Assembly (NCBI RefSeq): GCF_041320665.1
Contig: NZ_CP166730.1
Coordinates: 3,906,001-3,970,000 of the forward strand
Length of the DNA: 64,000 bases
Direction of reading: 5' to 3'
Origin: Comamonas sp. GB3 AK4-5
GTDB lineage: Bacteria; Pseudomonadota; Gammaproteobacteria; Burkholderiales; Burkholderiaceae_C
Under the pieces are notes generated by a model, which worked only from the letters and a program-made list of their open reading frames with translations, was not told the DNA's origin and searched no databases. Made by a program: the position numbers and the translations under genes. Positions 17,578-35,098 of the stretch are shown here, piece by piece; within the stretch, counting starts at the first letter, position 1, and the number at the start of each line of letters is the position of its first letter.

Positions 17578-18297
17578 TCACTCCGGCAACACCAAGCCCA
17601 CCGCATCCGGCCAGGCCCGTACCAAGCGCTGTGCCCCAGCAAACTGCGGCCTGGCCGCCGGTGACTCGCAATCCACCAGCACCTGAGACAGGCCTTGGGG
17701 GCCGCGCTGCTGCTCCAGCGCCAGCACATCGGGGCTGCGAAAGTCGCTGAGTAGCCACAGGCAGGCGGGCTGGCCCTGCTGCTGCGCACGCCGGGCCAGC
17801 AGTTCCCAGGCCTGGTGCACGGCCAGGGCCAAAGGCGTGCCGCCGCCGCCACCTAAGGGTTCGATCAGCGCGGCATTCCAGCGCGGTGCGCGGCCGGGTG
17901 GCAGCCGCCAATGCACCTGGCCGGCGCCAAAGCACAGCAAGGCCACGGGCATGCGCTGCAAATAGGCCCAGCGCATCCATTGCAACACCAGGCCCTTGGC
18001 GCGCGCCAGGGCACCGCTGGCCATGGAGGCCGAACAGTCCAGGGCAAACACATGCAGGGTCTGGGGTGTCGTCAGGGCCTGGCGCCAGCGCAAATGCGCG
18101 GGCTGGAGGCCTGCCTCGGGGTCGGCCTCCAGCAGGCGGGCACGCAGGCTGGCCGGCCAGTCCAGCATGGCGCCGGCATCGCCGGGCATCACACCCGGGC
18201 GCGTCTGGCCGGCCAGGGCCGCACCCTGGGCTGGCGTGTTGGCTCGCCCTCGCCCCCGGCCCGCAGGGCTTAACGCGGCAGGCCGGGGGCGCGGGCT
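17578..18297 (-). CDS. chlD: chlD, VWA part reached by -1 frameshift (ChlD-like medium subunit of cobaltochelatase)
   Basis: This is the -1-frame continuation of the AAA+ frame at 18270-19484. Slippage on the A7 run at 18303-18297 would continue the protein through 239 more residues, giving about 635 residues in total, the usual ChlD size. The segment begins with an Arg/Gly/Pro-rich linker (SPAGRGRGRANTPAQGAAL) and then a von Willebrand A domain. Its metal-ion site has DCSASM, GGGGTPLA and LLSDFRS. Internal GTG-ATG starts at 18192/18189 could allow separate initiation of a 204-residue VWA protein. However, they would drop the linker, which is itself chlD-like. With CobN and the AAA+ domain it would form an ATP-driven chelatase inserting cobalt into hydrogenobyrinic acid a,c-diamide. 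Confidence 0.8.
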   Translation of the reverse strand, partial: SPRPRPAALSPAGRGRGRANTPAQGAALAGQTRPGVMPGDAGAMLDWPASLRARLLEADPEAGLQPAHLRWRQALTTPQTLHVFALDCSASMASGALARAKGLVLQWMRWAYLQRMPVALLCFGAGQVHWRLPPGRAPRWNAALIEPLGGGGGTPLALAVHQAWELLARRAQQQGQPACLWLLSDFRSPDVLALEQQRGPQGLSQVLVDCESPAARPQFAGAQRLVRAWPDAVGLVLPE

Positions 18298-18318
18298 TTT
18301 TTTGCGGCCAGGGCCTCC
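18251..18318 (-). promoter_or_regulatory. dnaX-type -1 programmed ribosomal frameshift signal in chlD
   Basis: Reading the minus strand, three elements occur in order. The first is a Shine-Dalgarno-like GGAGG (18318-18314), with exactly 10 nt to the next element. The second is a slippery A AAA AAA G (18303-18297) in the codon phase GCA AAA AAA. The third, after 5 nt, is a perfect 11-bp stem, CGCCCCCGGCC with GGCCGGGGGCG (18291-18281 and 18261-18251). The zero-frame stop TAA (18272-18270) lies in the loop. Spacing and order match the E. coli dnaX signal. The -1 frame joins exactly the missing VWA half. Confidence 0.85.
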
Positions 18319-19484
18319 ATGGCGGCCTGGGCCAGGGCATCACCCAGCGGGGGCGCGCAGAGGGTACTTGCCTGGGGCAGGGGCTGACCCCAGCCCTGGG
18401 GAGGTTGTTCCAGGGCCTGGGGGGCGCTGCCAGCCTGGCCTTTTTGATCCGCACCAGGAGCCGGCGCCGGACTGTGCATGGACTGCGCCGGGGACGGTGC
18501 GGGTGCAGCAGCTGGCTTACTCGCGGCGCTCTGCGATGCCAGCACCTGCTGAGGCTGCGCATCGGAAGCCGGCGCGGACTGTGGCTGTGGCGGCTGGGTC
18601 AACGTCGGCTGCTGCGGCTCTGCCCCACGGTGGGCCAGCACCAGGGGCGCGACCCGGGCCACATGCTCGGCCTCTATGGCCGGGCTTTGCTCCCAGGCCG
18701 CCAGGGCCCGGGCCGCGCGCAGCATCACCAGATCGGCACGCAGGCCGTCCACCTGGGCCGCAATGCATTGCTGAGCCACGGCCTCGTGGATGGCATCGCT
18801 CCAGGGCAGTTCGTCGGGGTTGGCGCAGCGTGCACGCGCCACGCGCAAACGCTCTGCCAGCGCGGCCTGCTGGGGCGCATGCTCCCGGGCAAAGCCTGCA
18901 GGGTCCAGCTCAAAGCGCAGCCTGGATTTGACGATGGCGCTGCGCAGCTGCACGTCCTGGGCATTGGCCAGCTGCACGCACAGGCCCAGCCGGTCCAGCA
19001 GCTGCGGGCGCAGCATGCCTTCCTCGGGGTTCATGGTGCCTATCAGCACAAAGCGCGCCGCATGGCTGTGGGAGATGCCGTCGCGCTCCACACGGTTCAC
19101 GCCCGAGGCGGCCACATCCAGCAGCACATCGACGATGGCATCGGGCAGCAGATTGATTTCGTCCACATAGAGCACGCCGCCATGGGCCTTGGCCACCATG
19201 CCGGGGGCGAACACCAGTTCGTTGCCGGCCAGGGCCTTGCCCAGGTCCAGGCTGCCCAGCACATGCTCCACCGAGGCCCCCAGCGGCAGCGTGGCAAACG
19301 GTGCGGGCGCCAGCAGCTCGGCCAGGGCCCGCGCCGCCGTGGACTTGGCCGTGCCGCGCGGCCCCTGTATCAGCACGCCCCCCAGGGCGGGCTCAATGGC
19401 AGCCAGCAGCAGGGCTTGAACCAGTTGAGGCTGCCCCTGAATGGCCACCAATGGAAACACTGGCGGTAATGTGGAGACCGTCAT
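18270..19484 (-). CDS. chlD: chlD zero-frame product: ChlI-like AAA+ ATPase (small subunit form)
   Basis: AAA+ ATPase related to magnesium chelatase subunits I and D, 404 residues in the zero frame. Start: the ATG (MTVSTLPPVFPL) overlapping the cobN stop as ATGA; the frame is open 28 codons further up but that part lies inside cobN. Walker A is GPRGTAKST (about 39-47). Walker B is GGVLYVDEINLLPD. The arginine-finger/sensor region has GTMNPEEGMLRPQLLDRLGL. Residues from about 290 to the end are Pro/Ala/Gln-rich linker, as in ChlD. Ribosomes that do not shift would release a ChlI-like protein; shifted ones make the full ChlD. No separate chlI, cobS or cobT is in the window. This gene and cobN form the end of the riboswitch-controlled operon A. 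Confidence 0.9.
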   Translation of the reverse strand: MTVSTLPPVFPLVAIQGQPQLVQALLLAAIEPALGGVLIQGPRGTAKSTAARALAELLAPAPFATLPLGASVEHVLGSLDLGKALAGNELVFAPGMVAKAHGGVLYVDEINLLPDAIVDVLLDVAASGVNRVERDGISHSHAARFVLIGTMNPEEGMLRPQLLDRLGLCVQLANAQDVQLRSAIVKSRLRFELDPAGFAREHAPQQAALAERLRVARARCANPDELPWSDAIHEAVAQQCIAAQVDGLRADLVMLRAARALAAWEQSPAIEAEHVARVAPLVLAHRGAEPQQPTLTQPPQPQSAPASDAQPQQVLASQSAASKPAAAPAPSPAQSMHSPAPAPGADQKGQAGSAPQALEQPPQGWGQPLPQASTLCAPPLGDALAQAAMEALAAKKARAPGLPR

Positions 19485-22400
19485 TGCGATGCCCGTCCTT
19501 CCATGAATTCTTCCTGCTCCAGCATGTGCGTCAGCAGTGTCTGGTGCATGTCCTCGGGTCGCTCCCACATGCCACGGTCTATGGCCTCCAGCAGGCGATT
19601 CACGATATCGCTCAAGGCCTGGGGATTGTGCGCGCGCAAAAAGCCGCGCACGGCCTCGTCTTCCACATAGGCCTGGGCCACCATCTGGTAGTGGCGGTCG
19701 GAGACCAGGGCCGTGGTGGCGTCAAAGCCAAACAGATAGTCCACCGTGGCCGCCATCTCAAAGCCGCCCTTGTAGCCGTGGCGCATGGCGCCGGCAATCC
19801 ATTTGGGATTGGTCACGCGGGCGCGCACCACGCGGCCGATTTCCTCGGCCAGCGAGCGGATCTTGGCCGAAGCGGGATTGCCATGGTCGCCGTGGTAAAT
19901 GGCCGGTTCACTGCCACCCAGATGGCGCACGGCGGCCACCATGCCGCCCTGGTGCTGGTAGTACTCGCTGGAGTCCAATAAATCGTGCTCGCGGCTGTCC
20001 TGGTTTTGCAGCACCACGTCCAGGGCCTGCAGGCGCGTTTCCAGTGCCTGGCGCGCGGGCAGGCCGTCGGCCTGCTGGCCGTAGGCATAGGCGCCCCAGT
20101 GCAGGTAGTGGCGGGCGAAATCGCCGGCATCGGTCCACTGCCCGGTGCGCAGCATCTCGTGCATGCTGGCGCCATAGCTGCCTGCGGGTGCGCCAAACAC
20201 GCGCCACAGCGCCTGCTCGTGGGCCTGGTCTGCGTCCATGCCCTGGGCGGCCCAGGCGGCGGCATCGCGCTGCACGCGCGCACGCAGCGGGTTGTCTTCC
20301 GCGTCTTCTTCCTGCGCGGCCACGGCACGCACGGCGGCGTCGAACATCTGCACCACATTCGGAAAGGCATCGCGGAAAAAACCGCTGATGCGCAGCGTCA
20401 CATCCACGCGCGGGCGCTGCAGGCCCACGCGGGGGATGACCTCAAAGTCCAGCACGCGCTGGCTGCCCGGCGCCCATTTGGGGCGCACACCGATCAGCGC
20501 AAAGGCCTGGGCGATATCGTCGCCGCCGGTGCGCATGGTGGCCGTGCCCCAGACCGAGATGCCTATGGCCTGGGGATACTCTCCATGCTCTTGCAGATAG
20601 CGCTCTATCAGCCGCTGCGCCGATTGCTGGCCCAGGGCCCAGGCGGTCTGCGTGGGAATGGCACGCGTATCCACGGTGTAGAAATTGCGGCCCGTGGGCA
20701 GGGTGTCGCAGCGCCCGCGCGAAGGCGATCCGCTGGGCCCGGGCGGCACAAAACGGCCCTGCAGCGCGCGCGAGAACTGGCGCAACTCTTCGCTGCCGCA
20801 GGCATCCAGGGCCGGCGCCACCTCCCGCCCCAGGCGTTCCAGCACGGCCTGGGTGTGAGGCCAGTCTTTTGCTATTTGTGGATCCTCCAGCAGCTGCAGG
20901 GCCAGCAGCTCCAGGCGCTCGCGCGTATCGCCGCCATGGCGCCAAGGGCCGGCATCAATGGCCGCCAGCAGCGCCGGGCGCGGGCCGGCCCAGGGGGCCG
21001 CCGCATCCATGTCCAGCGGGTTCCAATCGCAACCCGGTAAATCGGAAAAGAGATCGGCCACCAGCGCATGCAGCAAACCTTGGGCGCTGTCGCCCTTGCC
21101 GGCGCTGGGATAGCGGGCCAGGGACAGCAGCGTGGAGGTGCGCAGCGATCCCTCGGGCGAACGGCCAAAGATATGCAGGCCGTCGCGGATCTGGGTTTCC
21201 TTCAGCTCGCACAGATAGGAATCGATGCGCTCCAACAGTTGCGCGTCCGCATCGACCTTCTGCTCGGCGCTTGGACCGTCGCTCTGTACCTCGGCCTTGG
21301 CCTCCAGCCCCAGCTCGCGCAGCAAATCCTGCTCGCGGGCAAGCTCCAGAATCTGGCGGCGCAGCATGGTGGCGCGGCGCTGGTCCACCAGCAGGGCCTC
21401 GTAGTACTCGTCCACCAGCCGCTCCAGCTCCTGCATAGGGCCGTGGTTTTCAGCGCGCGTGAGCGGCGGCATCAGGTGGTCGATGATCACGGCCTGGCTG
21501 CGGCGCTTGGCCTGCGCACCCTCGCCGGGGTCATTGACGATAAAGGGATAGACATGGGGCAGCGGCCCCAGGATGGCATCGGGCCAGCATTGGCTGGACA
21601 GGGCCAGGCTTTTGCCCGGCAGCCATTCCAGATTGCCATGCTTGCCCACATGGACCATGGCGTCCACACCAAAGCTGTCGCGCAGCCAGAAGTAGAACGC
21701 CAGGTAATGGTGGGGCGGCACCAGCTCGGCGTCGTGGTAACTGGCGTAGTCGTTCTTGCCATCCAGCGCGCGTGTGGGCTGTATGCCCACAAACACATGA
21801 CCCAGCTGCAGCCCCGCCACCATGAACCAGCCCTGGCGCAGCATGGGGTCTTGCTCGGGCGCGCCCCATTGGGCCTCCAATGCCGTGCGCATGGCCTCGG
21901 GCAGCTGCTGCAGGCGCTGGCGGTAGGCCGCCAGCGAATAGCCCTGGCGGGCCGGGCGCAACGCCCATTGTTTGGGGTCGTTGGCAATGCCTTGCTGCAG
22001 CTGCTCCATCAGCGCCAGGCCGCTGGTGGGGCGCGCTGCGGCATCGCCCAGGTTCCAGCCATCGCGCTCCAGCTGGGCCAGCAGCTGCATCACGGATTCG
22101 GGCGTATCCAGGCCCACGCCGCTGCCCATGCGGGCCTCGCTGCCGGGGTAGTTGGCCAGCACCAGGGCCACACGCTTGGCTGCGGCCGGCTTGCTGCGCA
22201 GCAGGCACCAGCGGGCCGCCAGCTCGGCAATCCATTGCACGCGGTCGGGCTCGGCCTGGTAGGCCACAACATCGGTCTGGGTCAGCTCGCAACGGTGCAC
22301 CAGGCCTTTGAAACTCATGGCCCGGGTCATGATGCGGCCGTCCATTTCGGGCAGCACCACCTGCATGGCGATATCGCGCGGGCGCAGGCCCTGGGTGTCG

Positions 22401-23374
22401 GCCAGCCAGTCCTCGCGGTTGCTGCCGCTGGCAATCACCTGCAGCACGGGAATATCGCCGGCCAGGGTGTCGATCTCGCCCCCCGTCACGCCTGCGGCCC
22501 GAGCGTGTTCGCCCAGGGCCGCAAAAGCCGTGGTGTTGAGGATGAGCTGCACCTGGTGGGCGGTGCACAGCGTGCGCAGCGTTTGCAGGCACAGCCCGTC
22601 CTTGAGCGACTCCAGCGCCAGCGGCAGCGGGTTCAGGCCCTGGGCCAGCAAGGCCTGGGCCATGGCATCGAAGGCCTCGGTGTTGGCCGCCAGCAGATGC
22701 GAGCGATAGAACACCAGCATCACCACGGGTGCGCCCGGCGTCCAGCGGGACTGCAGATCGTCCAGGCCGGGAAGATGCGTGGCGCCGCCTTGTACCCCGC
22801 CTTGCACCCAATCCAGCGGCACATGCACGGCCACCGGCGGCAGCAGGCGCACGGGCGCCCCCTCTACCGCCCTGCCCAGGCCCCAGGCCGCGGCCATGCG
22901 CAAGAATTCGCGCGCATTGCCCAGGCCGCCCGCACGCAGGTATTGCCACAGCGCCCGGCTTTGCTCGGGCGCCAGCGTGCCCCTGGCCAACAGCTCGGCG
23001 TCTTCCTGGCTGTCGCCCGAGAACAGCGCCAGCTTCTGGCCTTTTTGCAGGGCAAGCTTGCGCAGCTGCTCTATGCCATAAGGCCAGCCCGACTCGGCGC
23101 CCAGGTGGTCGACGATGACGGTCTTGGCGTGCTGCAAGACCTCGTCGATGTACAGATCCAGCGAGGCGTTCTGGCGCAGATGCAGCAGATTCGCCAGGCG
23201 CAGCGAAGGAGCGTCAGGCTCGGCCTGCTGCCAGATACGGTAGGCATCGGCCAGCAGGGACAGCGTGGTGTCGGCCGAACTCAGCACCACGATCTCGGCC
23301 GGGGTCTGATCGAGGCGGTTGATGATGCTGTCGTCTTCGACAAAGCCACCGGGGCGGGTGCTGAGCAGGTGCAT
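19481..23374 (-). CDS. cobN: CobN, large subunit of aerobic cobaltochelatase
   Basis: Porphyrin/corrin-binding H-type subunit, 1297 residues, the usual length for CobN. It holds hydrogenobyrinic acid a,c-diamide for ATP-dependent cobalt insertion in the late-insertion aerobic B12 pathway. Recognisable family segments include HVGKHGNLEWLPGKSLALS, VYPFIVNDPGEGAQAKRR and FGRSPEGSLRTSTLLSLARY. Others are LPTGRNFYTVDTRAIPT, ISVWGTATMRTGGDDIAQAF and RVGLQRPRVDVTLRISGFFR. The C-terminal part (KGGFEMAATVDYLFGFDATT) is intact. The start is an ATG (MHLLSTRPGGFVED). It overlaps chlD by 4 bp. It lies 196 bp after cobW across a palindromic repeat, so it may also have its own promoter. Confidence 0.96.
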   Translation of the reverse strand: MHLLSTRPGGFVEDDSIINRLDQTPAEIVVLSSADTTLSLLADAYRIWQQAEPDAPSLRLANLLHLRQNASLDLYIDEVLQHAKTVIVDHLGAESGWPYGIEQLRKLALQKGQKLALFSGDSQEDAELLARGTLAPEQSRALWQYLRAGGLGNAREFLRMAAAWGLGRAVEGAPVRLLPPVAVHVPLDWVQGGVQGGATHLPGLDDLQSRWTPGAPVVMLVFYRSHLLAANTEAFDAMAQALLAQGLNPLPLALESLKDGLCLQTLRTLCTAHQVQLILNTTAFAALGEHARAAGVTGGEIDTLAGDIPVLQVIASGSNREDWLADTQGLRPRDIAMQVVLPEMDGRIMTRAMSFKGLVHRCELTQTDVVAYQAEPDRVQWIAELAARWCLLRSKPAAAKRVALVLANYPGSEARMGSGVGLDTPESVMQLLAQLERDGWNLGDAAARPTSGLALMEQLQQGIANDPKQWALRPARQGYSLAAYRQRLQQLPEAMRTALEAQWGAPEQDPMLRQGWFMVAGLQLGHVFVGIQPTRALDGKNDYASYHDAELVPPHHYLAFYFWLRDSFGVDAMVHVGKHGNLEWLPGKSLALSSQCWPDAILGPLPHVYPFIVNDPGEGAQAKRRSQAVIIDHLMPPLTRAENHGPMQELERLVDEYYEALLVDQRRATMLRRQILELAREQDLLRELGLEAKAEVQSDGPSAEQKVDADAQLLERIDSYLCELKETQIRDGLHIFGRSPEGSLRTSTLLSLARYPSAGKGDSAQGLLHALVADLFSDLPGCDWNPLDMDAAAPWAGPRPALLAAIDAGPWRHGGDTRERLELLALQLLEDPQIAKDWPHTQAVLERLGREVAPALDACGSEELRQFSRALQGRFVPPGPSGSPSRGRCDTLPTGRNFYTVDTRAIPTQTAWALGQQSAQRLIERYLQEHGEYPQAIGISVWGTATMRTGGDDIAQAFALIGVRPKWAPGSQRVLDFEVIPRVGLQRPRVDVTLRISGFFRDAFPNVVQMFDAAVRAVAAQEEDAEDNPLRARVQRDAAAWAAQGMDADQAHEQALWRVFGAPAGSYGASMHEMLRTGQWTDAGDFARHYLHWGAYAYGQQADGLPARQALETRLQALDVVLQNQDSREHDLLDSSEYYQHQGGMVAAVRHLGGSEPAIYHGDHGNPASAKIRSLAEEIGRVVRARVTNPKWIAGAMRHGYKGGFEMAATVDYLFGFDATTALVSDRHYQMVAQAYVEDEAVRGFLRAHNPQALSDIVNRLLEAIDRGMWERPEDMHQTLLTHMLEQEEFMEGRASQ

Positions 23375-23450
23375 GCTTCAATAATAAGAGCTGTTGATGC
23401 TCTAGGGATAAGCGTTAGAGGCCGATTTTCCTTGTGAGGGCACGAGGCTC

Positions 23451-23551
23451 CCCCTCACCCCTGCCCTCTCCCGCAAGCGGGAGAGGGGGCGCAGACAGCG
23501 TGGTTTTTCTCCCTCGCCCGCCTGGGCGGGAGAGGGTTGGGGTGAGGGTGG
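23451..23551. repeat. Inverted pair of dispersed palindromic repeats between cobW and cobN
   Basis: CCCCTCACCCCTGCCCTCTC at the left and GAGAGGGTTGGGGTGAGGG at the right are near-complementary. Each half also contains its own small hairpin (CTCTCCCGCAAGCGGGAGAG and CTCGCCCGCCTGGGCGGGAG). The whole could fold into a stem of about 100 nt. One copy of the same motif is at 10125-10160. It could attenuate transcription between cobW and cobN, but it lacks a terminator U-run. Confidence 0.65.
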
Positions 23552-23570
23552 AGGGATGCGTCACCAGGCT

Positions 23571-24620: not shown

Positions 24621-25532
24621 TCAAGCTCCTGAAGAGGTTTCGCGAGGAATCGGGGAAAGCGGTGGGGAAGATGTGGCGGATGCGGGATCGGTTTCTGTAG
24701 GCTGACCCGGCAGGCCATGCACACACAGCCTGCCATCAACCTCACCGTGCAGCACATGGCGGCTGAGCACGGTCTGCATCTCGCCTGCGTCGGTGATGGG
24801 CCCATACCAGGCGCCTTGGGGGTAGACAATCATCAGCGGGCCGTGGTTGCAGGGGTATTGGCAGCTGGTCTGCAGCAGCATGAGGCGCTTTTTGAGCTGT
24901 GGATTCTCGCGCACCACGCGCGCCAAATCCGGCCACAGCTGCACCGCCCCCTTGGCCGCACAGCGCGGCCCCATGCACCACAGCACATGGTGGCTGTGCT
25001 CCGGCACGCTGGACCAGCCCTTGGGGTCATGCTCCCAGGCATCGTCGCCCACCACGGCGGGCACATCGGCCGTATCGGGTGCAGACAGCAGCTGCCGCAC
25101 CGTGCCTGCCAGCGTCTCGGCCAATTGGGGGGCCTCGGGCAGCGGGGGCGCAAAAATCAGCCTTGGGGTGCTTTCATGTTCACCACGCCCGACACGTCCA
25201 GCGCGCCAGCGCATGATGAGCTTGTGCATCCAGCGGCGCAGTGCGGGCTCGTCGGGCACCATGACCGGCACGATGACCACGGTGTGCGCGGCCTGGCAGG
25301 CGTCCAGGGCCTCGGGCAAGGCCGGCTGGTAACGGTCCACAAAGGCAGGCTGCACCACGATCTGCGTCCAGGTCGGCTCCATGCCCTGTGCCTGCATACC
25401 GGCCTGCAAGCTGGCATGCACATGCTCTGCCAGCAGCGCCAACTCGGCCTCGCTGGCGGCATAGACCGCACCACGTCCGAGCAGGATGACGGCCAGCGAA
25501 TTCGAATGCGGAGGAGAGAGGACGGTGTTCAA
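24621..25532 (-). CDS. CbiX-like domain fused to thioredoxin-fold [2Fe-2S] ferredoxin domain
   Basis: Two-domain protein of 303 residues. The N-terminal half (about 10-145) resembles a CbiX/chelatase-type domain (LAVILLGRGAVYAASEAELA, VVIVPVMVPDEPALRRWMHK). The C-terminal half (about 180-280) has the paired cysteines of thioredoxin-like [2Fe-2S] ferredoxins. These are CMGPRCAAKG, then after about 30 residues TSCQYPCNHGPLMIVYPQG. Such fusions accompany aerobic cobalamin operons and may give electrons for cobalt reduction, but that role is inference. The usual CbiX metal-binding histidines are not obvious: GRG stands where HG is common. So the N-terminal half may be non-catalytic. The start overlaps the upstream btuF stop as ATGA. 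Confidence 0.82.
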   Translation of the reverse strand: MNTVLSPPHSNSLAVILLGRGAVYAASEAELALLAEHVHASLQAGMQAQGMEPTWTQIVVQPAFVDRYQPALPEALDACQAAHTVVIVPVMVPDEPALRRWMHKLIMRWRAGRVGRGEHESTPRLIFAPPLPEAPQLAETLAGTVRQLLSAPDTADVPAVVGDDAWEHDPKGWSSVPEHSHHVLWCMGPRCAAKGAVQLWPDLARVVRENPQLKKRLMLLQTSCQYPCNHGPLMIVYPQGAWYGPITDAGEMQTVLSRHVLHGEVDGRLCVHGLPGQPTETDPASATSSPPLSPIPRETSSGA

Positions 25533-26578
25533 CGCTCGGCCTCCTGGTTGAAGTGCACAGCGTTGACGGTGATCTGCCGCTCGGGATGCAGCGCGGCCGC
25601 CAGCCGCTGCGCCGTCTCCACATTGCGCGGACCGGGCGTGGCCTCGGCATAGCTCATCACAAAAAAGCGGCGATGGCGAATCGCACTCACCGCTTCCAGC
25701 TCTTTTTTCTGCAGCAAAAAGTCAATCTTTCCCTGTGCATTGGGTGTGCCGTAGTCCACGATGATGATCCACTCGGGGTTGCGGTCGATCACATCTTCCC
25801 AGTTGCCCTTGGGCCAGTTATTGGCCAGGTCGGCAAAGATGTTGCTGGCGCCGGCCTCATCCATCATGGCCTGGGGCATGCCAAAGCGGCCCACGGTGGT
25901 GGGGAGTTTCTCGCCGCTGTCAAAGACAAAGACGCGGGGGCGCTGCGCCACACCCTGCATCTGCTGCCTCAGCTGCTGCAGCGCTGCGCGCAGCGGCGCC
26001 ATGCGCGCCTCGGCCTGCGGCCGGATGCCAAAGATGCTGGCCACGTTCTCCATGTCCTGAAAGCCATCGTCCAACGCCACGCGCTCGCGCTGCTGTACGC
26101 GAATGCAGGACTCGGACAGCACATAGGACGCCACACCATGCTCGGCCAGGCGCTCGGGGGTGACGCCGCCCGGGCGAAAGCCGTAGCCCCAGCCGGCAAA
26201 AACAAAGTCGGCGTTCACGCCCAGCAGGCTCTCCATATTCATGCCCTGGGCCGACAGATTGGGCACCCGTTCCAGCCAAGGCGAGAGCTGTGGGCTGATG
26301 GTTTTTTGCGACGAGATACCGCCATAGCCTGCCAGCTTCTCGCCCAAACCAAGGAACAGAAACATCTCTGCAATATTCACATCATGTGTGACGGCGCGCT
26401 GGGGCACGCGGTCATAGCGTGCGGGCTGGCCGCACACATCGATGACCACGGGAGGATCATGCCGCTGAACATGGGCCTGCTCGCCTGCAGGCTGCTGCGC
26501 CTGCTGCTCGCCGCACCCGGCTGCGAGTACAGCCAGGGGCAGCATGCAGGCTTGAAACCAAAATCTGCGCATGCCCAT
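25529..26578 (-). CDS. btuF: BtuF-like cobalamin-binding lipoprotein, operon A
   Basis: Periplasmic lipoprotein of the helical-backbone binding-protein family that would hand cobalamin or a precursor to BtuCD. About 349 residues when begun at the ATG whose first base is the last base of the btuB1 stop (TGATG); a second ATG two codons on is possible. The lipobox is LAVLAAGC. Family features are VCGQPARYDRVPQRAVTHDV, LGEKLAGYGG, ADFVFAGWGYGF, FVFDSGEKLPTTVGRFGMPQ and NPEWIIIVDYG. It is a clear paralogue of the lipoprotein at 31080-32141 (shared PQRAVTH, YVLSESCIR and EATPGPRNV). No permease is in this operon, so it may use BtuCD of operon B. Confidence 0.88.
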   Translation of the reverse strand: MGMRRFWFQACMLPLAVLAAGCGEQQAQQPAGEQAHVQRHDPPVVIDVCGQPARYDRVPQRAVTHDVNIAEMFLFLGLGEKLAGYGGISSQKTISPQLSPWLERVPNLSAQGMNMESLLGVNADFVFAGWGYGFRPGGVTPERLAEHGVASYVLSESCIRVQQRERVALDDGFQDMENVASIFGIRPQAEARMAPLRAALQQLRQQMQGVAQRPRVFVFDSGEKLPTTVGRFGMPQAMMDEAGASNIFADLANNWPKGNWEDVIDRNPEWIIIVDYGTPNAQGKIDFLLQKKELEAVSAIRHRRFFVMSYAEATPGPRNVETAQRLAAALHPERQITVNAVHFNQEAER

Positions 26579-28719
26579 CAGAAACGCAGCTGCGCCATCA
26601 GCTCCACGCTGCGGCTGGTGCCCAGAATCCACTGGGTGTTGTAGGCCGAGGTGGCATAAACGCGGTTGGTGAGGTTGCGACCAATCAGACTCAGCGTGGT
26701 CTTGGGGTTCACATTCCAGCTCACCACCGCATCCACCAGGGTGTAGGCAGGCAGGCGCTTGGCATCGCTGTTGGCGTTGTCGCCAAAGCGCTGGCCCACA
26801 TGGCGCAGGCCCAGCGAGGTGCGCCAATCACCCATGCGGTAATGGCCCCACAAATTGGCCGTGACCTTGGGCACATTGGAGGGACGGTTGCCGGCGCGGT
26901 TGGCGCCTCCTGCCTCGATCAACTCGTCAAATTTGGCGCGGGTATAGGCCGCATTGGCTTCCAGGCGGAAGGCCGGGGTCACATTGAAGGCACCCGCCAG
27001 TTCCAGCCCATTCGAGGACTGCTTGCCGCCCTGAATCGACAGGGCCGAATTGTTCGGGTCGCGCGTGATGATGTCGTTCTTGGTGATCTGGAACAGCGCC
27101 GCCGTCCATTCACCACGGCCTGCTGCCAGTTGCTGCTTGAAGCCCAGCTCCTGCTGGCGGCCCTTGCTCAGCGTAAAGCCCGTCTGCGACTCTGCAAGAG
27201 ACAACAGGCTGGTGACAGGATCATGCCCAGTGCTCATTTGCGCATAGACGCTGGACGCTTCGTCCAGCTTATAGGTCGCACCCAGACGCCATGAGGTGCC
27301 GTTCAAGTCTTTGTCAAAACCCGTATTGGCAGGCAAGTTCCGGCGCGAGAACTCATACCAGTCGCGCCGTATGCCGCCCATGAGCAGCCATTGCGCATTG
27401 ATCTTCCAGGCATCTTCTATGAACAGCGCGTTCTGGCGCAGCGTAGAGTCCATGCGCGGCGTATAGGCGTTGGCGCTGATCCAGGAGCCCGGCACGGGAT
27501 CGAACGCCGACACATTGGAAGTGCCGGTGTACGGCGAGTTGTTGCTGTTGCGGAAGTTGGTGTGAGACACATCCCAGCCCAGTGCCACCTGGTGGGCGCC
27601 GGCCTTCCAGTCCAACGCCATGCGATTGCCGTTTTGCTGCAGCGCATGACCAATCTCCAGATAGTCCGAGCGCGCCACCGTCCCTGCCAAGGGATCGTAC
27701 TTATAAGCTTCAATGTTCTTCCAATGCCGGTCAGAACTGAAGTGGTAAAGCTCGTTGCGCAGGCTCAGTGCTTCATTGACCTGCCAACTGGCCTTGGCCT
27801 TGAAGCGCCGGTCACGGTAGTGAATATCGCTGTCCTCGGAGTTATAGCCCTGGTCCTTCAGCTCCCGCGCCAGGCGGCCATCCACCACCGGGGTGCCGTA
27901 GTAACGCGAAGGTGCCTGGCTGCTGATATCGGCCGTCAAATCGAAGGTGAGATCGCTGCGTGGCTGCCAGCGCAACGCACTCATCAGCTTGGCGCTCTTG
28001 CTGTCGTCAAAGGGGCGCGAACCATCGCTGCTGGCGCCATAGGCATCCACACGGTAGCTCAGGGTGTCGCTGATGGCACCGGTGCTGCCCACACCCACAC
28101 GGGCCGTGCCGTGGTTGCCGCCGGTGAGCATGAGCTCGGTGGAGCGCTCGCGGCTGGGTTGCTTGCGGATGGCATTGACCGTGGCGCCCATGGTACCGCT
28201 GCCATACATCAACGAGGCCGGGCCGCGCAGCACCTCCAGGCGCTCATAGCCCCAGGTGTCCGAGGGATAGTTGATCGTGCCCGAGCCCACGCCCAGCATG
28301 ATGCCGTCCTCGGCCACACCCACCGAATTCACGCCGGCAAAGCCACGACTGGAAAACGACAGCCCGCCATTGCCCGGCGAGCCAGCAGCCGTCAGGCCCA
28401 CGGTGCGGGTCACCGCATCTACCGTGCCCCGGTCGGCGCGTTCTTCCATTTGCTCGGCCGACACGCCGCTGACACTGGCGGGCAGGTCCAGCACACGCAC
28501 ATCCACATGCGAGGCCGATGTGGCAGGACGGTTGGTGTCCAGGGCCGCTTCGACCTGGCGGGCCTCCTGCACCGTCACCTCGGGCAGAGCTTGCTGGGCC
28601 AGCACGGCTGCTGGCCACAGCAGCGCCAGTTGCAGCGCTGCGCTGCCGGTGCAAAGGGAAAAAGGAGGGGCCTTGCCGGAGAACGTAGAAGCGGCGAGAA
28701 GAGTTTGTGTATTGCGCAT
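26578..28719 (-). CDS. btuB: TonB-dependent cobalamin receptor (BtuB-like), operon A
   Basis: Outer-membrane receptor without an STN domain, about 713 residues from the ATG at 28719. An upstream TTG would add 22 unlikely residues. The signal peptide ends LLWPAAVLAQQ. A TonB box LPEVTVQEAR follows. The plug has LDLPASVSGVSAEQMEERA, SFSSRGFAGVNSVGVAEDG and LEVLRGPASLMYGSGTMGA. The barrel ends VELMAQLRF. The strongest functional evidence is the cobalamin riboswitch 157-373 nt upstream and the cobalamin genes downstream. It is a paralogue of the receptor at 32189-34405, sharing DGWGYERVEVLRGPAS-type plug motifs. It could recognise a corrinoid or, less likely, another chelate needed with B12. Confidence 0.85.
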   Translation of the reverse strand: MRNTQTLLAASTFSGKAPPFSLCTGSAALQLALLWPAAVLAQQALPEVTVQEARQVEAALDTNRPATSASHVDVRVLDLPASVSGVSAEQMEERADRGTVDAVTRTVGLTAAGSPGNGGLSFSSRGFAGVNSVGVAEDGIMLGVGSGTINYPSDTWGYERLEVLRGPASLMYGSGTMGATVNAIRKQPSRERSTELMLTGGNHGTARVGVGSTGAISDTLSYRVDAYGASSDGSRPFDDSKSAKLMSALRWQPRSDLTFDLTADISSQAPSRYYGTPVVDGRLARELKDQGYNSEDSDIHYRDRRFKAKASWQVNEALSLRNELYHFSSDRHWKNIEAYKYDPLAGTVARSDYLEIGHALQQNGNRMALDWKAGAHQVALGWDVSHTNFRNSNNSPYTGTSNVSAFDPVPGSWISANAYTPRMDSTLRQNALFIEDAWKINAQWLLMGGIRRDWYEFSRRNLPANTGFDKDLNGTSWRLGATYKLDEASSVYAQMSTGHDPVTSLLSLAESQTGFTLSKGRQQELGFKQQLAAGRGEWTAALFQITKNDIITRDPNNSALSIQGGKQSSNGLELAGAFNVTPAFRLEANAAYTRAKFDELIEAGGANRAGNRPSNVPKVTANLWGHYRMGDWRTSLGLRHVGQRFGDNANSDAKRLPAYTLVDAVVSWNVNPKTTLSLIGRNLTNRVYATSAYNTQWILGTSRSVELMAQLRF

Positions 28720-28875
28720 TTCAAAAAAGGCTGGAACCGCCTGATGGGAAAGCTGCGCAGACAAAGGCTTCGCCGGGGACGGCAATGCGCTCTGGAATTC
28801 CGGCCGCCATCCGCACCCCGCAGACAGTTATAGCAAGCGCCAGTCGCTGGGCGACGGCGCGCTGTGGCGTTTCTA

Positions 28876-29092
28876 CAGGCCGGTCTCCGGGCTCACAGGC
28901 AGCGCATCACTGCGCCTTCTCACTCCGCCTTCCCGGGTGGCTCGCACACATGTTTTTGTGAGCAAACCGGCCCAGTGGCCGCAAGCGCGTGAAGCGACTT
29001 GCATGGGGTGTTTTCCTGCATACCGTTGCGGGGGCAGCCAAGGCATGGCGGTCTCAGAACATGTTCTCAAACCGGACCTTGTTCCCGTTTCA
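28876..29092 (-). ncRNA. Cobalamin (adenosylcobalamin-class) riboswitch, operon A leader
   Basis: Minus-strand leader with the conserved cobalamin-aptamer core. The distal start is AAACGGGAACAAGG. The strongly conserved GCTGCCCCCGCAACGGTA follows (around 29024-29041). CCGGGAAGGCGG comes next. The B12 box AGCCCGGAGACCGGCCTG is at 28893-28876. High cobalamin should reduce expression of the btuB1-btuF1-cbiX-cobW-cobN-chlD operon. About 156 nt separate it from the btuB1 start; the expression platform was not resolved. Confidence 0.95.
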
Positions 29093-29110
29093 CTTGCTGC
29101 AAAGCAAGCA

Positions 29111-29141
29111 CCTGCTAAAACAACGTGTCCCTAAGGGCACG
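29111..29141 (-). terminator. Probable intrinsic terminator of btuCD operon B
   Basis: On the minus strand CGTGCCC TTA GGGACACG forms a short stem with a one-base bulge, followed by TTGTTTTAG. It lies 75 bp after the btuD stop and just before the operon A riboswitch. Confidence 0.6.
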
Positions 29142-29215: not shown

Positions 29216-30004
29216 TTACAGCAGCGCTTGCGGCACATACTCGATCAAGAGCTTGCCCGTGCGCGGGCTGGTGCTGACCAGAGCGCGCACGCCGTAGACC
29301 TGGGCAATGGTGTCCGCCGTCAGCACCTGGGCTGGTGTGCCCTGGGCCACCAGGGCGCCGCCTTGCAACAGGTAAAGGCGGTCGCAGTAGTGTGCTGCCA
29401 TCTGCAGCTCGTGCAGCGCGGCCAGCGTGGTCAGGCCCAGGCTGCGTATCAGATTCATCAGCTCGAACTGGTGGCGCACATCCAGGTGGTTGGTGGGCTC
29501 GTCCAGCACCAGCATGGGAGCCTGCTGGGCCAGGGCGCGGGCCATGAGCACGCGCTGCTTTTCTCCGCCGGAAAGCGTGGAAAACATGCGTTGGGCGAGG
29601 CTCTGCGCGTCCACGCGCTGCAAGGCCTGCGCGACGATGTCCAAATCCTCTTGGCTGTCGCGCGCCCATGCGGCCTGGTGGGGGATACGGCCCATCAACA
29701 CCACGTCCTGCACGCTGAGGGCGAACTCGCTGCCGTTCTCCTGGGCCAGCACGGCCATGGCGCGCGCATTCTCGCGGGCACTGCTGCGCCAGACATCACG
29801 CCCCTCTAGCAGCACGCTGCCACTGGCAGGCTGGAGGATGCGGTAGATCATGCGCAGCAACGTGGATTTGCCACTGCCGTTGGGGCCCAGCAGACCCACA
29901 AACTCACCCCGGCCCACATGCAGGCTGACATCGCGCACGATATGGGCCGCCGCCGCCTGCCAGTGCAGGCCCTGGGCCTGCAGTTGCATGTCTAACTCGC
30001 TCAT
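29216..30004 (-). CDS. btuD: BtuD-like ABC transporter ATPase for cobalamin/iron chelates
   Basis: Cytoplasmic ATPase that powers uptake by BtuC, 262 residues from the ATG (MSELDMQLQ) overlapping the btuC stop as ATGA. Walker A is GPNGSGKST. The Q-loop region is MAVLAQENGS. The signature is TLSGGEKQRV, Walker B is MLVLDEPTNHLD, and the switch histidine is in AALHELQMA. All catalytic motifs are intact, unlike the ATPase at 37300. It is the last gene of operon B, followed by a probable terminator. Confidence 0.93.
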   Translation of the reverse strand: MSELDMQLQAQGLHWQAAAAHIVRDVSLHVGRGEFVGLLGPNGSGKSTLLRMIYRILQPASGSVLLEGRDVWRSSARENARAMAVLAQENGSEFALSVQDVVLMGRIPHQAAWARDSQEDLDIVAQALQRVDAQSLAQRMFSTLSGGEKQRVLMARALAQQAPMLVLDEPTNHLDVRHQFELMNLIRSLGLTTLAALHELQMAAHYCDRLYLLQGGALVAQGTPAQVLTADTIAQVYGVRALVSTSPRTGKLLIEYVPQALL

Positions 30005-31083
30005 AGGCCCAGACCTTTGCTGCTGTTTTTGCGGCACAGCATCCAGACAAAAAATGGGCCCCCCAGCAGCGAGGTGATGACGCCCACCGGCACCTCGGCC
30101 GGCGCAAAGCTGATGCGCGAAACAACATCCACCCAGACCAGAAAGATGGCACCCAGCAGCGCTGCCACGGGCAGCACGCGCCGGTGCTCGGCACCCACCA
30201 GCATGCGGGTGATGTGGGGCACCATCAGGCCGACAAAACCGATGGGGCCGGTGAGCGCCACCAGCACACCGGTGACCATGGAGACCAACACAAACAGCCA
30301 GCGCCGCGTGCGCGTGGTGTCCACACCCAGCGTGGCCGCGCTTTCCTCGCCGGCCAGCAAGGCATTGAGAGCGCGCGCCTGCCCCAGCAACAAACCCATG
30401 CCCAGCAGCAGCAGGGCCGCAGGCAGGCCCAGATCATCCCAGCGTGTGCCGGCCAGGCTGCCCAAAGTCCATGTCAACACGGAGTTGGCGAGCTCGCGCT
30501 GGCCCGAGGTCAGCACCATCAGGCTGGTAACGCCGCCCAGGCAATAGGCCACGGCCACCCCGCCCAGAATCAGGCGCGAAGCCAGCAACTGCCCCTGGAC
30601 ATGGGCCAGCAGATAGACCGCCGTACAAGCCGTCAGCGCACCCGCAAAAGCCCCCAGTGGCAAGGCCAGATCGCCCGCAAACGCCAGCACGCCGAAGGCC
30701 AGCACAGCGACCGCCCCCACCGAGGCGCCCGAAGACACGCCCAGCAAATAGGGATCGGCCAGCGGGTTGCGCACCATGGCCTGCATGGCCACGCCCACCA
30801 GGGCCAGGCCGGCCCCAGCCAGGGCCGCCAGCAGCACGCGCGGCAGCCGTATGCGCCAGACGATTTGGTATTGGGACAGACTCCAGTCACCGGGCGGCAG
30901 CTCCAGGCCCAGCCGCAGCCCCAGCTCCTGGGCAGCGATATGCCAGGCCTGCTGCGGCGCGATGCGCACAGGGCCCAGGGTGATGGCCAGCGTCAGCGAC
31001 AAGGCCAGCAGAGCCAGCAGGGCCAACAGCCAGTAGCGCAGGCGGCGGCGCTGCAGCGCGAAGTGCAAGCTGCTCATACTCAT
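30001..31083 (-). CDS. btuC: BtuC/FecCD-type ABC transporter permease
   Basis: Inner-membrane permease of the cobalamin/iron-chelate family, 360 residues with about 10 predicted membrane helices, the normal size. Family motifs include RLPRVLLAALAGAGLALVGV, MQAMVRNPLADPYLLGVSSG, ALTGPIGFVGLMVPHITRML and RRVLPVAALLGAIFLVWVD. It is coupled by 4-bp overlaps both to the upstream btuF2 and to the downstream btuD. It is the only BtuC-type permease in the window. So it may serve three binding proteins: this operon's BtuF, the operon A BtuF and the lone protein at 16161. Confidence 0.94.
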   Translation of the reverse strand: MSMSSLHFALQRRRLRYWLLALLALLALSLTLAITLGPVRIAPQQAWHIAAQELGLRLGLELPPGDWSLSQYQIVWRIRLPRVLLAALAGAGLALVGVAMQAMVRNPLADPYLLGVSSGASVGAVAVLAFGVLAFAGDLALPLGAFAGALTACTAVYLLAHVQGQLLASRLILGGVAVAYCLGGVTSLMVLTSGQRELANSVLTWTLGSLAGTRWDDLGLPAALLLLGMGLLLGQARALNALLAGEESAATLGVDTTRTRRWLFVLVSMVTGVLVALTGPIGFVGLMVPHITRMLVGAEHRRVLPVAALLGAIFLVWVDVVSRISFAPAEVPVGVITSLLGGPFFVWMLCRKNSSKGLGL

Positions 31084-32141
31084 GGCTGCGCCACCCGCTC
31101 AGGGTGCAAGGCCTGGGCGATGCGGCGCACGGCCTGCACATTGCGAGGACCGGGCGTGGCCTCGGCAAAGTCCAGCAGCACAAAGCGCTGCTCGCGTATG
31201 GCCTTGAGATGGGAGAGCTCGGGCTTGCGCAGCAGAAATTCTTTTTTGCCCCCGGGCGTGGGCCTGTCGTTGTCGACGATGACGATCCAGTCCGGATCGC
31301 GGTCAACCACATCCTCCCAGTTGCCGCGCATCCAGCTGCTGCCCAGATCGTCAAAGATGTTGCTGCCGCCTGCAGCCTCGATCATGGCCTGGGGCATGGC
31401 GTAGCGGCCTGTGGTCACGGGAATGTCGGTGCCGCTGTCAAACACAAACACCTTGGGCCACTGCGTAATGCCTTGCAGGGCCTGGGCCAGGACCCGCAGC
31501 TCGGCGCGCTGCCCATCGACCAGATCCTGGGCACGCTCGGCAATGCCGAAGATACGGCCCAGGTTGAGCAGGTCGTCAAACGTGTCCTCCAGCGATACGC
31601 GCTCGCGCTGGATCTTGCGTATGCAGGATTCACTGAGCACGTAGCTGGCAATGCCCAGCTCGGCCAGGCTGGCAGGCGTGATCTGGCCTTCGCGAAAGCC
31701 ATAGGACCAGCCGCTGAAGACAAAATCCGGCTGGGCATGGATCAGTGTTTCCAGGTTCATGTCCTGGCTGGACAGATCGGGGACCTGGGCCAGCTGGGCA
31801 CGCATCTCCGGCGGCAGCCGACTCAGGTCACGCAGGCCCCCATAGCCCACCAGGCGATCGCCCAGGCCCAGGGCCAGAAACATCTCGGTGATGTTGATGC
31901 CATGGGTGACTGCGCGCTGGGGTATGCGCTCGTAGAGCACGGGCTGGCCACAGACCTGGAGGCGCAGTGGCGCGCGCGCTGCGGCCACCGCTGGGTCTGC
32001 GGGTGCAGCCGTCTCCAAGGCCTGCGCCGCTGGTTTTTCGCAGCCCGCAAGCCCCAGGGCCGCAGCACAGAGCAAAACGGGGCGTAGCAAAGACAGGAGC
32101 TGCATGCGCGCGTACTTTCTAGGTTTCACGGTGTTTTCCAT
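31080..32141 (-). CDS. btuF: BtuF-like cobalamin-binding lipoprotein, operon B
   Basis: Periplasmic lipoprotein of 353 residues with lipobox ALGLAGC (Cys near residue 34). Family motifs are VCGQPVLYERIPQRAVTHGI, LGDRLVGYGGL, PDFVFSGWSYGF, FVFDSGTDIPVTTGRYAMPQ and DPDWIVIVDND. An internal ATG at residue 13 (MQLLSLLRP) would give a more usual signal peptide; no Shine-Dalgarno sequence decides between them. Its stop overlaps the btuC start. It is a close paralogue of the operon A lipoprotein, so the receptor-lipoprotein pair seems to have been duplicated as a unit. Confidence 0.9.
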   Translation of the reverse strand: MENTVKPRKYARMQLLSLLRPVLLCAAALGLAGCEKPAAQALETAAPADPAVAAARAPLRLQVCGQPVLYERIPQRAVTHGINITEMFLALGLGDRLVGYGGLRDLSRLPPEMRAQLAQVPDLSSQDMNLETLIHAQPDFVFSGWSYGFREGQITPASLAELGIASYVLSESCIRKIQRERVSLEDTFDDLLNLGRIFGIAERAQDLVDGQRAELRVLAQALQGITQWPKVFVFDSGTDIPVTTGRYAMPQAMIEAAGGSNIFDDLGSSWMRGNWEDVVDRDPDWIVIVDNDRPTPGGKKEFLLRKPELSHLKAIREQRFVLLDFAEATPGPRNVQAVRRIAQALHPERVAQP

Positions 32142-32188
32142 CTGAATTCAAGTCCACATACGCACTAACAGCTATGGTTTTACTGCAC

Positions 32189-34405: not shown

Positions 34406-34411
34406 CGTTGT

Positions 34412-34456
34412 CAGAGGCTCACGACTTGCACATGCCGCATGCACGCAAGGCCTCTG
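34412..34456 (-). promoter_or_regulatory. Hairpin before btuB2 start, candidate riboswitch expression platform
   Basis: CAGAGGC (34412-34418) can pair with GCCTCTG (34450-34456), and CTTGC with GCAAG inside it. On the mRNA the 3' arm covers positions about -7 to -13 relative to the btuB2 ATG, where a ribosome binds. It could therefore block translation when cobalamin is bound. Confidence 0.5.
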
Positions 34457-34661
34457 GTGTCCAGGGGCTGGCCTTGCTGTATGACGGCTTGCACAGTCTT
34501 GGCGCAGCGACGCCTGCCTGCCCATGACCGCCCCATGCCGAGGGCCACACGCCACCATGGCGCCAGCCGCAAAGCCTGTTGCTGCCACACTGCACCCCGC
34601 AGGCGTTTGCTGCAAATGCCGCACGCCACGGGTCCCTCAACCCATGGTGTGCGACGCTCAA

Positions 34662-34918
34662 CAGGCCGGTCTCCGGGCTTGCAGACAGGCCACCAGAAGG
34701 TCCGGGGCCTTAGTCGCTTCGCCTTCCCAATGCCGCCGCGCAGCTCGCAGGAGCTCACGTAGGACATCAGTGGCCGGCGCCTGTCTTGCAGGACGCCATG
34801 AAGCGGTTCCATACGCTGCATCCACCATCGGGCCAGCAGGCCTTTGTGTGGATGGATGCCGCGTAATGTCTGTTTACCGTTGCGGGGGCAGCCAGGGCTT
34901 TGCACCCTGTTCCCGTTT
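34662..34918 (-). ncRNA. Cobalamin riboswitch, operon B leader
   Basis: Minus-strand aptamer with GAAACGGGAACAGGGTG at its start. GGCTGCCCCCGCAACGGTAA follows (around 34895-34876). CACTGATGTCC, GGGAAGGCGAAGCGACTAAG and the B12 box AGCCCGGAGACCGGCCTG (34679-34662) complete the core. It is about 40 nt longer than the operon A copy because of a larger variable arm. It controls btuB2-btuF2-btuC-btuD. Confidence 0.95.
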
Positions 34919-35098
34919 CACCCGGAGCAAGCCCCGGGCACCTGTTGCATGACTGGTGAAGACGGGCCAGATCGGCCCCTTCCCAATGCGTCGCGCAGTA
35001 TAAGGCCAGGTCTTGCGCCCACCGGGCTGGGCTGGCCTTGGTGGACGGCGGAGCAAAGCGCCCACCGATGCGGGCGGACATCCTCAGGCCTGCTGCTT
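34919..35098. other. Region upstream of riboswitch 2
   Basis: 180 bp of non-coding DNA that should contain the promoter of operon B, read leftward. No clear -35/-10 pair was picked out. The MITE-like repeat follows at 35099. Confidence 0.35.

What the first reader, a model, noticed from the sequence alone, without database searches (positions are those of the whole stretch)
17578..19484. chlD carries a complete dnaX-like -1 frameshift signal, letting one gene encode both small and medium cobaltochelatase subunits
The AAA+ frame ends at 18270 and the VWA frame lacks a good start, yet the two join perfectly by a -1 shift at A7 (18303-18297). GGAGG lies exactly 10 nt upstream and a perfect 11-bp stem begins 5 nt downstream, with the zero-frame stop in its loop. 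The predicted products are 404 and about 635 residues. Programmed frameshifting in CobN-linked chlD genes has been proposed in the literature, so the principle is known. This instance is unusually clean.
Basis: partly seen in the sequence, partly recalled or inferred. Interest (0 to 1): 0.75.

Follow-up and report, generated by a model that had tools for sequence, protein, structure and literature searches.

The report
Frameshifting chlD gene of cobaltochelatase
A vitamin B12 gene in a Comamonas-like bacterium carries a conserved signal that makes some ribosomes slip back one base, so one gene very probably makes two parts of the cobalt-inserting enzyme; the trick is already known, and this is a clear example with a shifted stop codon.

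Summary
Relatives exclude error or decay. In 68 of 68 examined loci of the same bacterial family the VWA half lies in the -1 frame, with an in-frame X_XXY_YYZ site (67 A_AAA_AAA, 1 C_CCA_AAA) and a stem of at least 6 bp starting 5-6 nt later, with compensatory changes. Both halves are under purifying selection. chlD follows cobN, ends a probable cobalamin-riboswitch operon, and no second ChlI, CobS or CobT was found above cut-off. The principle is published and measured in three other members (63, 40, 10%; PMC3711429), so this is a new member of a known kind. One derived feature: in 17 sister loci the stop of the short product lies in the hairpin at +25; in the 51 other family loci and 10 of 10 outgroup loci it is at +4. 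Side lead: four relatives keep cobN and this gene but lack CobH.

The parts
18270..19484 (-). zero-frame ORF, AAA+ (ChlI-like) product of 404 aa: the proposed small subunit
   Evidence: TIGR02442 best stretch 86-372 of 641, E 5.8e-107 (358.7 bits; a half alone does not reach the 779-bit cut-off); AAA_5, AAA_lid_2; Walker A GPRGTAKST
18314..18318 (-). GGAGG, Shine-Dalgarno-like stimulator, 10 nt before the slip site
   Evidence: GGAGG in 16 of 17 sister loci; duplex energy <= -5.5 in 16 of 17 against 91 of 1217 control linker windows
18297..18303 (-). A_AAA_AAA slip site in the zero frame
   Evidence: A_AAA_AAA in 67 of 68 examined family loci, C_CCA_AAA in the other
18281..18291 (-). 5' arm of the stimulatory stem
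18270..18272 (-). zero-frame TAA in the hairpin loop (+25), ends the short product
   Evidence: stop at +25 in 17 of 68 examined family loci (one clade), at +4 in the other 51
18251..18261 (-). 3' arm of the stimulatory stem
17578..18297 (-). -1 frame, 239 codons from the junction: VWA (ChlD C-terminal) half of the 635-aa long product, the proposed medium subunit
   Evidence: TIGR02442 best stretch 425-583 of 641, E 5.6e-16 (58.1 bits, under the whole-protein cut-off); VWA_2 E 5.7e-7; MIDAS-type DCSAS
19481..23374 (-). cobN, large subunit of cobaltochelatase, stop overlaps the chlD ATG
   Evidence: TIGR02257, 1488.7 bits, cut-off 822; cobN end within 240 nt upstream of the chlD match in 66 of 68 family loci, 1.1 kb in L060, not found in L038
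23571..24617 (-). cobW
   Evidence: TIGR02475, 486 bits, cut-off 332.1
24621..25532 (-). ORF with weak 2Fe-2S ferredoxin match in its C-terminal part
   Evidence: NF041612 E 3.7e-11, under its cut-off; no Pfam match
25529..26827 (-). BtuF-like periplasmic binding protein (true start probably further in)
   Evidence: PF01497, E 7.4e-16
26578..28785 (-). TonB-dependent receptor, first gene after the riboswitch
   Evidence: PF00593, PF07715
28861..29130 (-). cobalamin riboswitch heading the probable operon that ends with chlD
   Evidence: RF00174, 87.5 bits, cut-off 31.5

Best explanation
It is an fs-chlD gene: one cistron read in two ways by programmed -1 ribosomal frameshifting. Ribosomes read the AAA+ domain; at A_AAA_AAA the GGAGG behind them and the GC-rich hairpin ahead make the two lysine tRNAs slip back one base. 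Ribosomes that do not slip melt the lower stem, stop at the TAA in its loop and release a 404-aa ChlI/CobS-like small subunit. Slipped ribosomes go on through KK-SPRPR into the VWA domain and make a 635-aa ChlD/CobT-like medium subunit. With CobN these would form the aerobic cobaltochelatase, and slip efficiency would set the small:medium ratio. Shown by sequence: signal, frames, conservation, covariation, purifying selection, gene order, missing alternative subunit genes. Inferred: that slipping happens in this cell, its rate, that it is ribosomal, that the genes share one transcript, and the subunit roles.
For: -1 relation in 68 of 68 examined family loci. In-frame heptamer at the junction in 68 of 68; the overlap window is only 34 nt in L035 and still holds it. 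Lys is otherwise mostly AAG: 159 AAG to 45 AAA in 12 window genes. Stem of at least 6 bp from +6/+7 in 68 of 68 against 32% in a swap control and 28% in a shuffle control; position +10 occurs as C-G, G-C, A-U, U-A and U-G. GGAGG-like element enriched: 16 of 17 and 28 of 51 against about 7-8% of linker windows. dN/dS of the own gene against two near relatives: AAA 0.06 and 0.08, VWA 0.14 and 0.17. No start codon of the VWA frame is shared by the family. Both halves match successive parts of one family model, TIGR02442. chlD and CobH/CbiC co-occur in the genus: 34 both, 4 chlD only, 1 CobH only, 14 neither. Reporter frameshifting in three other members, PMC3711429.
Against: No protein or reporter data for this gene. 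The only A7 cassette in PMC3711429 gave just 10% in E. coli; 9 and 11 As gave 40 and 63%. The upstream GGAGG is lost in 1 of 17 sisters (L014), and 23 of 51 others do not pass the energy threshold. Fourteen of 68 stems have only 6 bp, and in several loci (such as L045, L047, L049, L070) the 60-nt minimum-energy fold does not show the whole helix, in some because its 3' arm lies beyond base 60. Four of 38 genus genomes with the gene lack CobH, so a role in full B12 synthesis cannot be general. Sixteen of the 38 also hold a CobS-like protein at about 500 bits, under the 558.55 cut-off.
Confidence: 0.88

Rival explanations
1. Transcriptional slippage: RNA polymerase adds or drops bases in the A run, and the mixed mRNAs give both proteins by normal translation.
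For: 67 of 68 examined family loci hold an A7 (A8 in L046). PMC3711429 names runs of more than 7 A as sites of transcriptional realignment, and poly-A length tracked shifted product in its reporters.
Against: Seven As lies under that length. Relatives keep the -1 relation with A_AAA_AAG (L092, L094, L095, L096) and C_CCA_AAA (L084), which fit tandem tRNA slipping better than base-run slipping. Fixed-distance stem and GGAGG are known as ribosomal stimulators.
Confidence: 0.06
2. Two separate genes: the VWA half is started on its own, or by coupled re-initiation after the TAA.
For: GTG at 18192 and ATG at 18189 lie in the VWA frame. Some close relatives share a start: an ATG at codon 36 after the junction in seven sisters (L013, L015-L020), a TTG at codon 47 in six others (L076-L081).
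Against: Duplex energy with the anti-SD at the window's GTG and ATG is only -1.7 and -3.1, and between 0.1 and 1.2 at the shared ATG; L014 has no ATG/GTG/TTG in the first 75 codons; no position is shared by the 68 loci. It leaves A7, -1 phase and stem conservation unexplained.
Confidence: 0.04
3. Sequencing error or decayed gene.
For: A homopolymer at a frame break is a usual error site (general knowledge).
Against: Same A7 and phase in genomes from nearest relatives (L007, L008) to other families; dN/dS well under 1 on both sides.
Confidence: 0.01

Closest known systems
fs-chlD / 'magnesium chelatase' recoding cluster (Antonov et al. 2013 PMC3711429; Antonov 2020 MBE msaa081, not held; Kuznetsov et al. 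2022 PMC9227772)
   Same: -1 frame change between AAA+ and VWA halves, poly-A slip site, downstream structure, next to cobN, no separate small-subunit gene. Delftia, of the same family by recall, is in the 2013 cluster.
   Different: In this clade the zero-frame stop lies in the hairpin loop at +25, and GGAGG is nearly fixed 10 nt upstream. The parts of the held papers that I read do not describe either.
E. coli dnaX frameshift element (recalled)
   Same: A_AAA_AAR, Shine-Dalgarno-like element about 10 nt upstream, stem about 5 nt downstream.
   Different: By recall the dnaX shift makes the short product; here it makes the long one. No frameshift family of Rfam matched 18180-18380 even at E <= 10.
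CobS/CobT and BchI/BchD, small and medium subunits from two genes
   Same: Same domain make-up and proposed roles.
   Different: One gene here, so the AAA+ domain is the same sequence in both products.
Fused single-frame ChlI-ChlD (TIGR02442)
   Same: Both halves match this model in order.
   Different: 17 of 47 order and class loci examined have both halves in one frame; none of the 68 examined in the family does.

Membership tests
fs-chlD | AAA+ half followed by VWA half in the -1 frame | tested here: met
fs-chlD | in-frame slippery poly-A heptamer at the junction | tested here: met
fs-chlD | downstream stimulatory RNA structure (predicted) | tested here: met
fs-chlD | cobN present, no separate small-subunit gene | tested here: met
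   no other match better than 1.4e-5; CobS at most 36.8 bits, cut-off 558.55; CobT none; CobN
fs-chlD | two products made in the cell | not testable with these tools
   needs mass spectrometry or a reporter; three other members measured in PMC3711429
dnaX-type signal | A_AAA_AAR with upstream SD-like element and downstream stem | tested here: met
   the dnaX spacing is recalled
frameshift element as an Rfam family | match to an Rfam frameshift model | tested here: not met
   nine hits far under their gathering scores, none a frameshift element
aerobic cobaltochelatase CobNST-type | CobN over curated cut-off, genome with corrin-ring genes | tested here: met
   CobN 1488.7 bits; CobH/CbiC present; 8 TP methylases, 5 of them at 682-688 kb beside CobH; the other ring genes were not searched one by one
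aerobic cobaltochelatase CobNST-type | cobalt insertion activity | not testable with these tools
   enzyme assay needed

The most novel reading that the evidence does not exclude
In the window's clade the end of the small subunit was moved for a reason: the stop beside the slip site (+4, ancestral) became an Arg codon, and a stop was fixed at +25 inside the hairpin. Every non-slipping ribosome then has to open the stimulator before it stops, so ribosome density on the riboswitch-controlled mRNA could feed back on the small:medium ratio. In two sister genomes (G017, G018) the operon, frameshift signal included, is kept under purifying selection without CobH and with few precorrin-type methylases, so this chelatase may metallate imported metal-free corrinoids.
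Probability: 0.15. Interest if true: 0.6.

Novelty: new member of a known kind. Interest (0 to 1): 0.38.

Why it matters
It turns a one-genome observation into a family-wide, covariation-backed case that a two-subunit ratio in B12 synthesis is set by ribosome slipping. It also offers natural variants for testing what each part does: stop at +4 or +25, GGAGG present or lost, A_AAA_AAA, A_AAA_AAG or C_CCA_AAA. The triplex idea for these stems (PMC5009743, section 18) is not favoured here: the longest pyrimidine run in the 5' arm is 2-6 nt in 68 loci.

Tried and rejected
Triplex or cation-sensing stem (Atkins et al. 2016, section 18 read): pyrimidine runs of the paired 5' arm are 5 or less in 67 of 68 loci and 6 in one, so a long triplex is unlikely as a general rule.

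A strict rule 'fs-chlD genomes lack CobS': rejected as general. In the genus 18 of 53 genomes hold a CobS-like protein near 500 bits, under the 558.55 cut-off; two of them (G034, G047) had no chlD match and no CobH, so that protein is probably not tied to B12.

The first script for the VWA half used the wrong frame for the C-terminal query; its results were dropped and redone.

Rows dropped before counting: L063-L069 (seven named records whose match figures and junctions repeat those of L010, L011, L015, L020, L013, L008 and L007) and L071-L074 (Cytobacillus twice, Pelotomaculum, Bacillus; no VWA match). Of the 82 family matches I examined 32 (own, two already in the genus set, 29 more). The other 50 were not read: 49 have 40-52% identity and start at residue 40 or later, as separate ChlI/BchI would (nine of them run past residue 300), and G068 is a 75% match over 97 residues in a short frame; frameshifted or fused chlD among them cannot be excluded. 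Of the order and class searches (61 and 21 matches) only the best-scoring loci were held; 47 were examined.

Plasmid search: 37 records, 20 listed, best 71.5% over 38% of the query; not followed.

Paper searches on a chelatase kept without the corrin pathway gave listings only; none of those papers was opened, so nothing is claimed about print there. One listed title (PMC12583661) names HmuS, a de-chelatase; its kinship to CobN is recalled.

No structure prediction and no homologous-protein search was made; sequence models sufficed.

Full report
OBSERVATION. On the minus strand chlD starts with ATG at 19484, overlapping the stop of cobN. The zero frame runs to TAA 18272-18270 (404 aa). The VWA frame is -1 to it, open from 18339 to 17578. 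Within the 70-nt overlap the only in-frame X_XXY_YYZ heptamer is A_AAA_AAA at 18303-18297. GGAGG (18318-18314) is 10 nt upstream. An 11-bp stem (18291-18281 with 18261-18251) begins 5 nt downstream, with the TAA in its 19-nt loop. The 61 nt after A7 fold at -47.8 kcal/mol, z -5.4. A longer stretch including A7 and the GGAGG gives -58.5, z -3.45, 1 of 200 shuffles as good.

PROTEINS. The zero-frame half matches TIGR02442 (putative cobaltochelatase) at model positions 86-372 and the -1 half matches the same model at 425-583. Each half alone stays under the model's 779-bit cut-off; the fusion was not scored. Pfam gives AAA families and VWA_2. A Walker A pattern occurs in 68 of 68 family loci and DxSxS in 67 of 68. 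The AAA+ domain is therefore of the complete ATPase type in both products.

RELATIVES. P0001 was searched in 53 genomes of the genus (38 match at E <= 1e-30), in 299 of the family (82 match), and in genome contigs (12 loci). Named hits are six Comamonas records, a MAG called Acidovorax, Diaphorobacter, and four distant records (two Cytobacillus, Pelotomaculum, Bacillus), so the window is from a Comamonas-like bacterium (inference). After dropping seven named duplicates and the four distant loci without VWA match, 68 loci remained: all 38 of the genus, 29 more of the family and L070. In all 68 the VWA half is in the -1 frame. The heptamer is A_AAA_AAA in 67 (within A8 in L046) and C_CCA_AAA in L084. 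The overlap in which the shift must happen is as short as 34 nt (L035).

STIMULATORS. A helix of 6-17 bp begins at +6 or +7 in 68 of 68; hybrid controls with another locus's downstream part give at least 6 bp in 32% and shuffles in 28%; at least 8 bp: 75% against 12% and 5%. The search takes the best helix in 80 nt, so the controls matter more than the raw count. Position +10 has all of C-G (23), G-C (17), A-U (14), U-A (8) and U-G (6). Within the window's own clade L016 has U-A where L013, L015 and L017-L020 have U-G and others C-G. These numbers count sequences, not independent events. The upstream SD-like element passes -5.5 kcal/mol in 16 of 17 loci of the window's clade and 28 of 51 others, against 91 of 1217 and 214 of 2764 control windows.

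SELECTION. Pairwise dN/dS, own gene against L007 and L008: AAA 0.06 and 0.08, linker 0.41 and 0.32, VWA 0.14 and 0.17; seven further pairs give AAA 0.06-0.19, linker 0.20-0.44, VWA 0.17-0.30. No start codon of the VWA frame is common to the family, though an ATG at codon 36 is shared by seven sisters and a TTG at codon 47 by six others.

TWO SIGNAL TYPES. In 51 family loci the zero-frame stop is at +4 (mostly A7 GCC TGA). In 17, the window's among them, that codon is Arg and the stop is at +25, as TAA, TGA or TAG, the short product ending KKARA(P/S)Gxxx. The 17 form one side of a branch with support 100/99 (tree rooted at midpoint only). All ten -1 loci from other families of the order and class have the stop at +4 (one search prints +3 because it counts from zero), with A_AAA_AAA in six (L093 within a run of ten A) and A_AAA_AAG in four. 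So +25 is derived (inference). That the stop codon identity varies while its place stays suggests selection for a stop there; drift after loss of the old stop is an equally simple reading.

WIDER. Of 47 order and class loci examined, 10 have the halves adjacent in -1, 17 in one frame, 9 have a VWA match over 1 kb away as in BchI-BchD, and 11 have no VWA in the flank; one of these eleven (L111) is of the window's family.

CONTEXT. The cobN end lies within 240 nt upstream in 66 of 68, 1.1 kb upstream in L060, and was not found in L038. In the window the order is cobalamin riboswitch (28861-29130), TonB receptor, BtuF-like protein, a ferredoxin-like ORF, cobW, cobN, chlD; there is a 196-nt gap between cobW and cobN, so one transcript is inferred. 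No other ChlI-like gene was found (next best E 1.4e-5), CobS stays at 36.8 bits against a 558.55 cut-off, and CobT gave nothing. CobH/CbiC is at 688.0 kb beside five TP methylases, so the corrin pathway seems present, far from the window. PF07685 gives three matches, but it rings in all 14 control genomes and says little.

A LEAD. G005, G017, G018 and G038 keep the -1 chlD with cobN upstream but lack CobH at E <= 1e-5 and have 3-4 TP methylases against 7-8 in G000, G007 and G008 and 2 in G047. In G017 and G018 the region keeps full-length cobN (1277 and 1279 aa, 83% identical), a cobalamin riboswitch, TonB and BtuF-like genes; of the two, cobW came out of my ORF listing in G018 only. G038 has riboswitch, cobW and cobN (1270 aa, 56%). 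The G017-G018 chlD pair has dN/dS 0.10 (AAA) and 0.18 (VWA) (L009-L011). L064 (Comamonas odontotermitis) repeats the figures of L011, so G018 is probably that species. Either the ring pathway was lost recently or the chelatase has a use without it; only CobH and the methylase count were tested.

LITERATURE. PMC9227772: parts 1-3 of 4 read. PMC3711429: passages and section 24: 23 fs-genes in six genera, three cassettes at 63, 40 and 10% for 11, 9 and 7 As. PMC5009743: passages and section 18. PMC8211752 and PMC7242693: passages only. Other papers were seen as listings only. Antonov 2020 is not held; I know it only from citations and recall. A search for Comamonas + chlD + frameshift found no held paper; subscription papers and the Chelatase DB could not be checked, so this very gene may already be listed there.

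VERDICT. Programmed -1 frameshifting in a cobN-linked chlD: observation confirmed, interpretation supported, principle known. Interest is moderate; the derived loop stop and the operon kept without CobH are the new points.

Noticed in passing
L142 (G017), L143 (G018), L144 (G038), L035 (G005): cobN and frameshifting chlD (with a cobalamin riboswitch in G017, G018 and G038) kept in genomes without CobH and with few precorrin-type methylases.
   Followed up: partly
G034, G047 and 16 other genus genomes: A CobS-like AAA+ protein near 500 bits to TIGR01650, under its cut-off, present also in two genomes without a chlD or CobH match; function probably not B12.
   Followed up: no
window 34647-34960: A second cobalamin riboswitch, before a TonB receptor and BtuF/BtuC-like genes at 30001-34624.
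   Followed up: partly
window 23375-23570: The gap between cobW and cobN holds GC-rich inverted repeats around CTCTCCCGC and GCGGGAGAG, perhaps a repeated palindromic element.
   Followed up: no
window 24621-25532: Operon ORF with only a weak 2Fe-2S ferredoxin match and no Pfam family.
   Followed up: no
window, six other A7 runs: Seven A7 runs in 64 kb against 1.33 expected from shuffles (2 shuffles reach 7); those at 14046, 14500 and 45285 lie inside listed ORFs.
   Followed up: no
L046: The only one of 68 VWA halves without a DxSxS motif, and its slip run is A8.
   Followed up: no
L145 13772-13851: SAH riboswitch within 20 kb of the corrin-ring gene cluster of the same genome.
   Followed up: no
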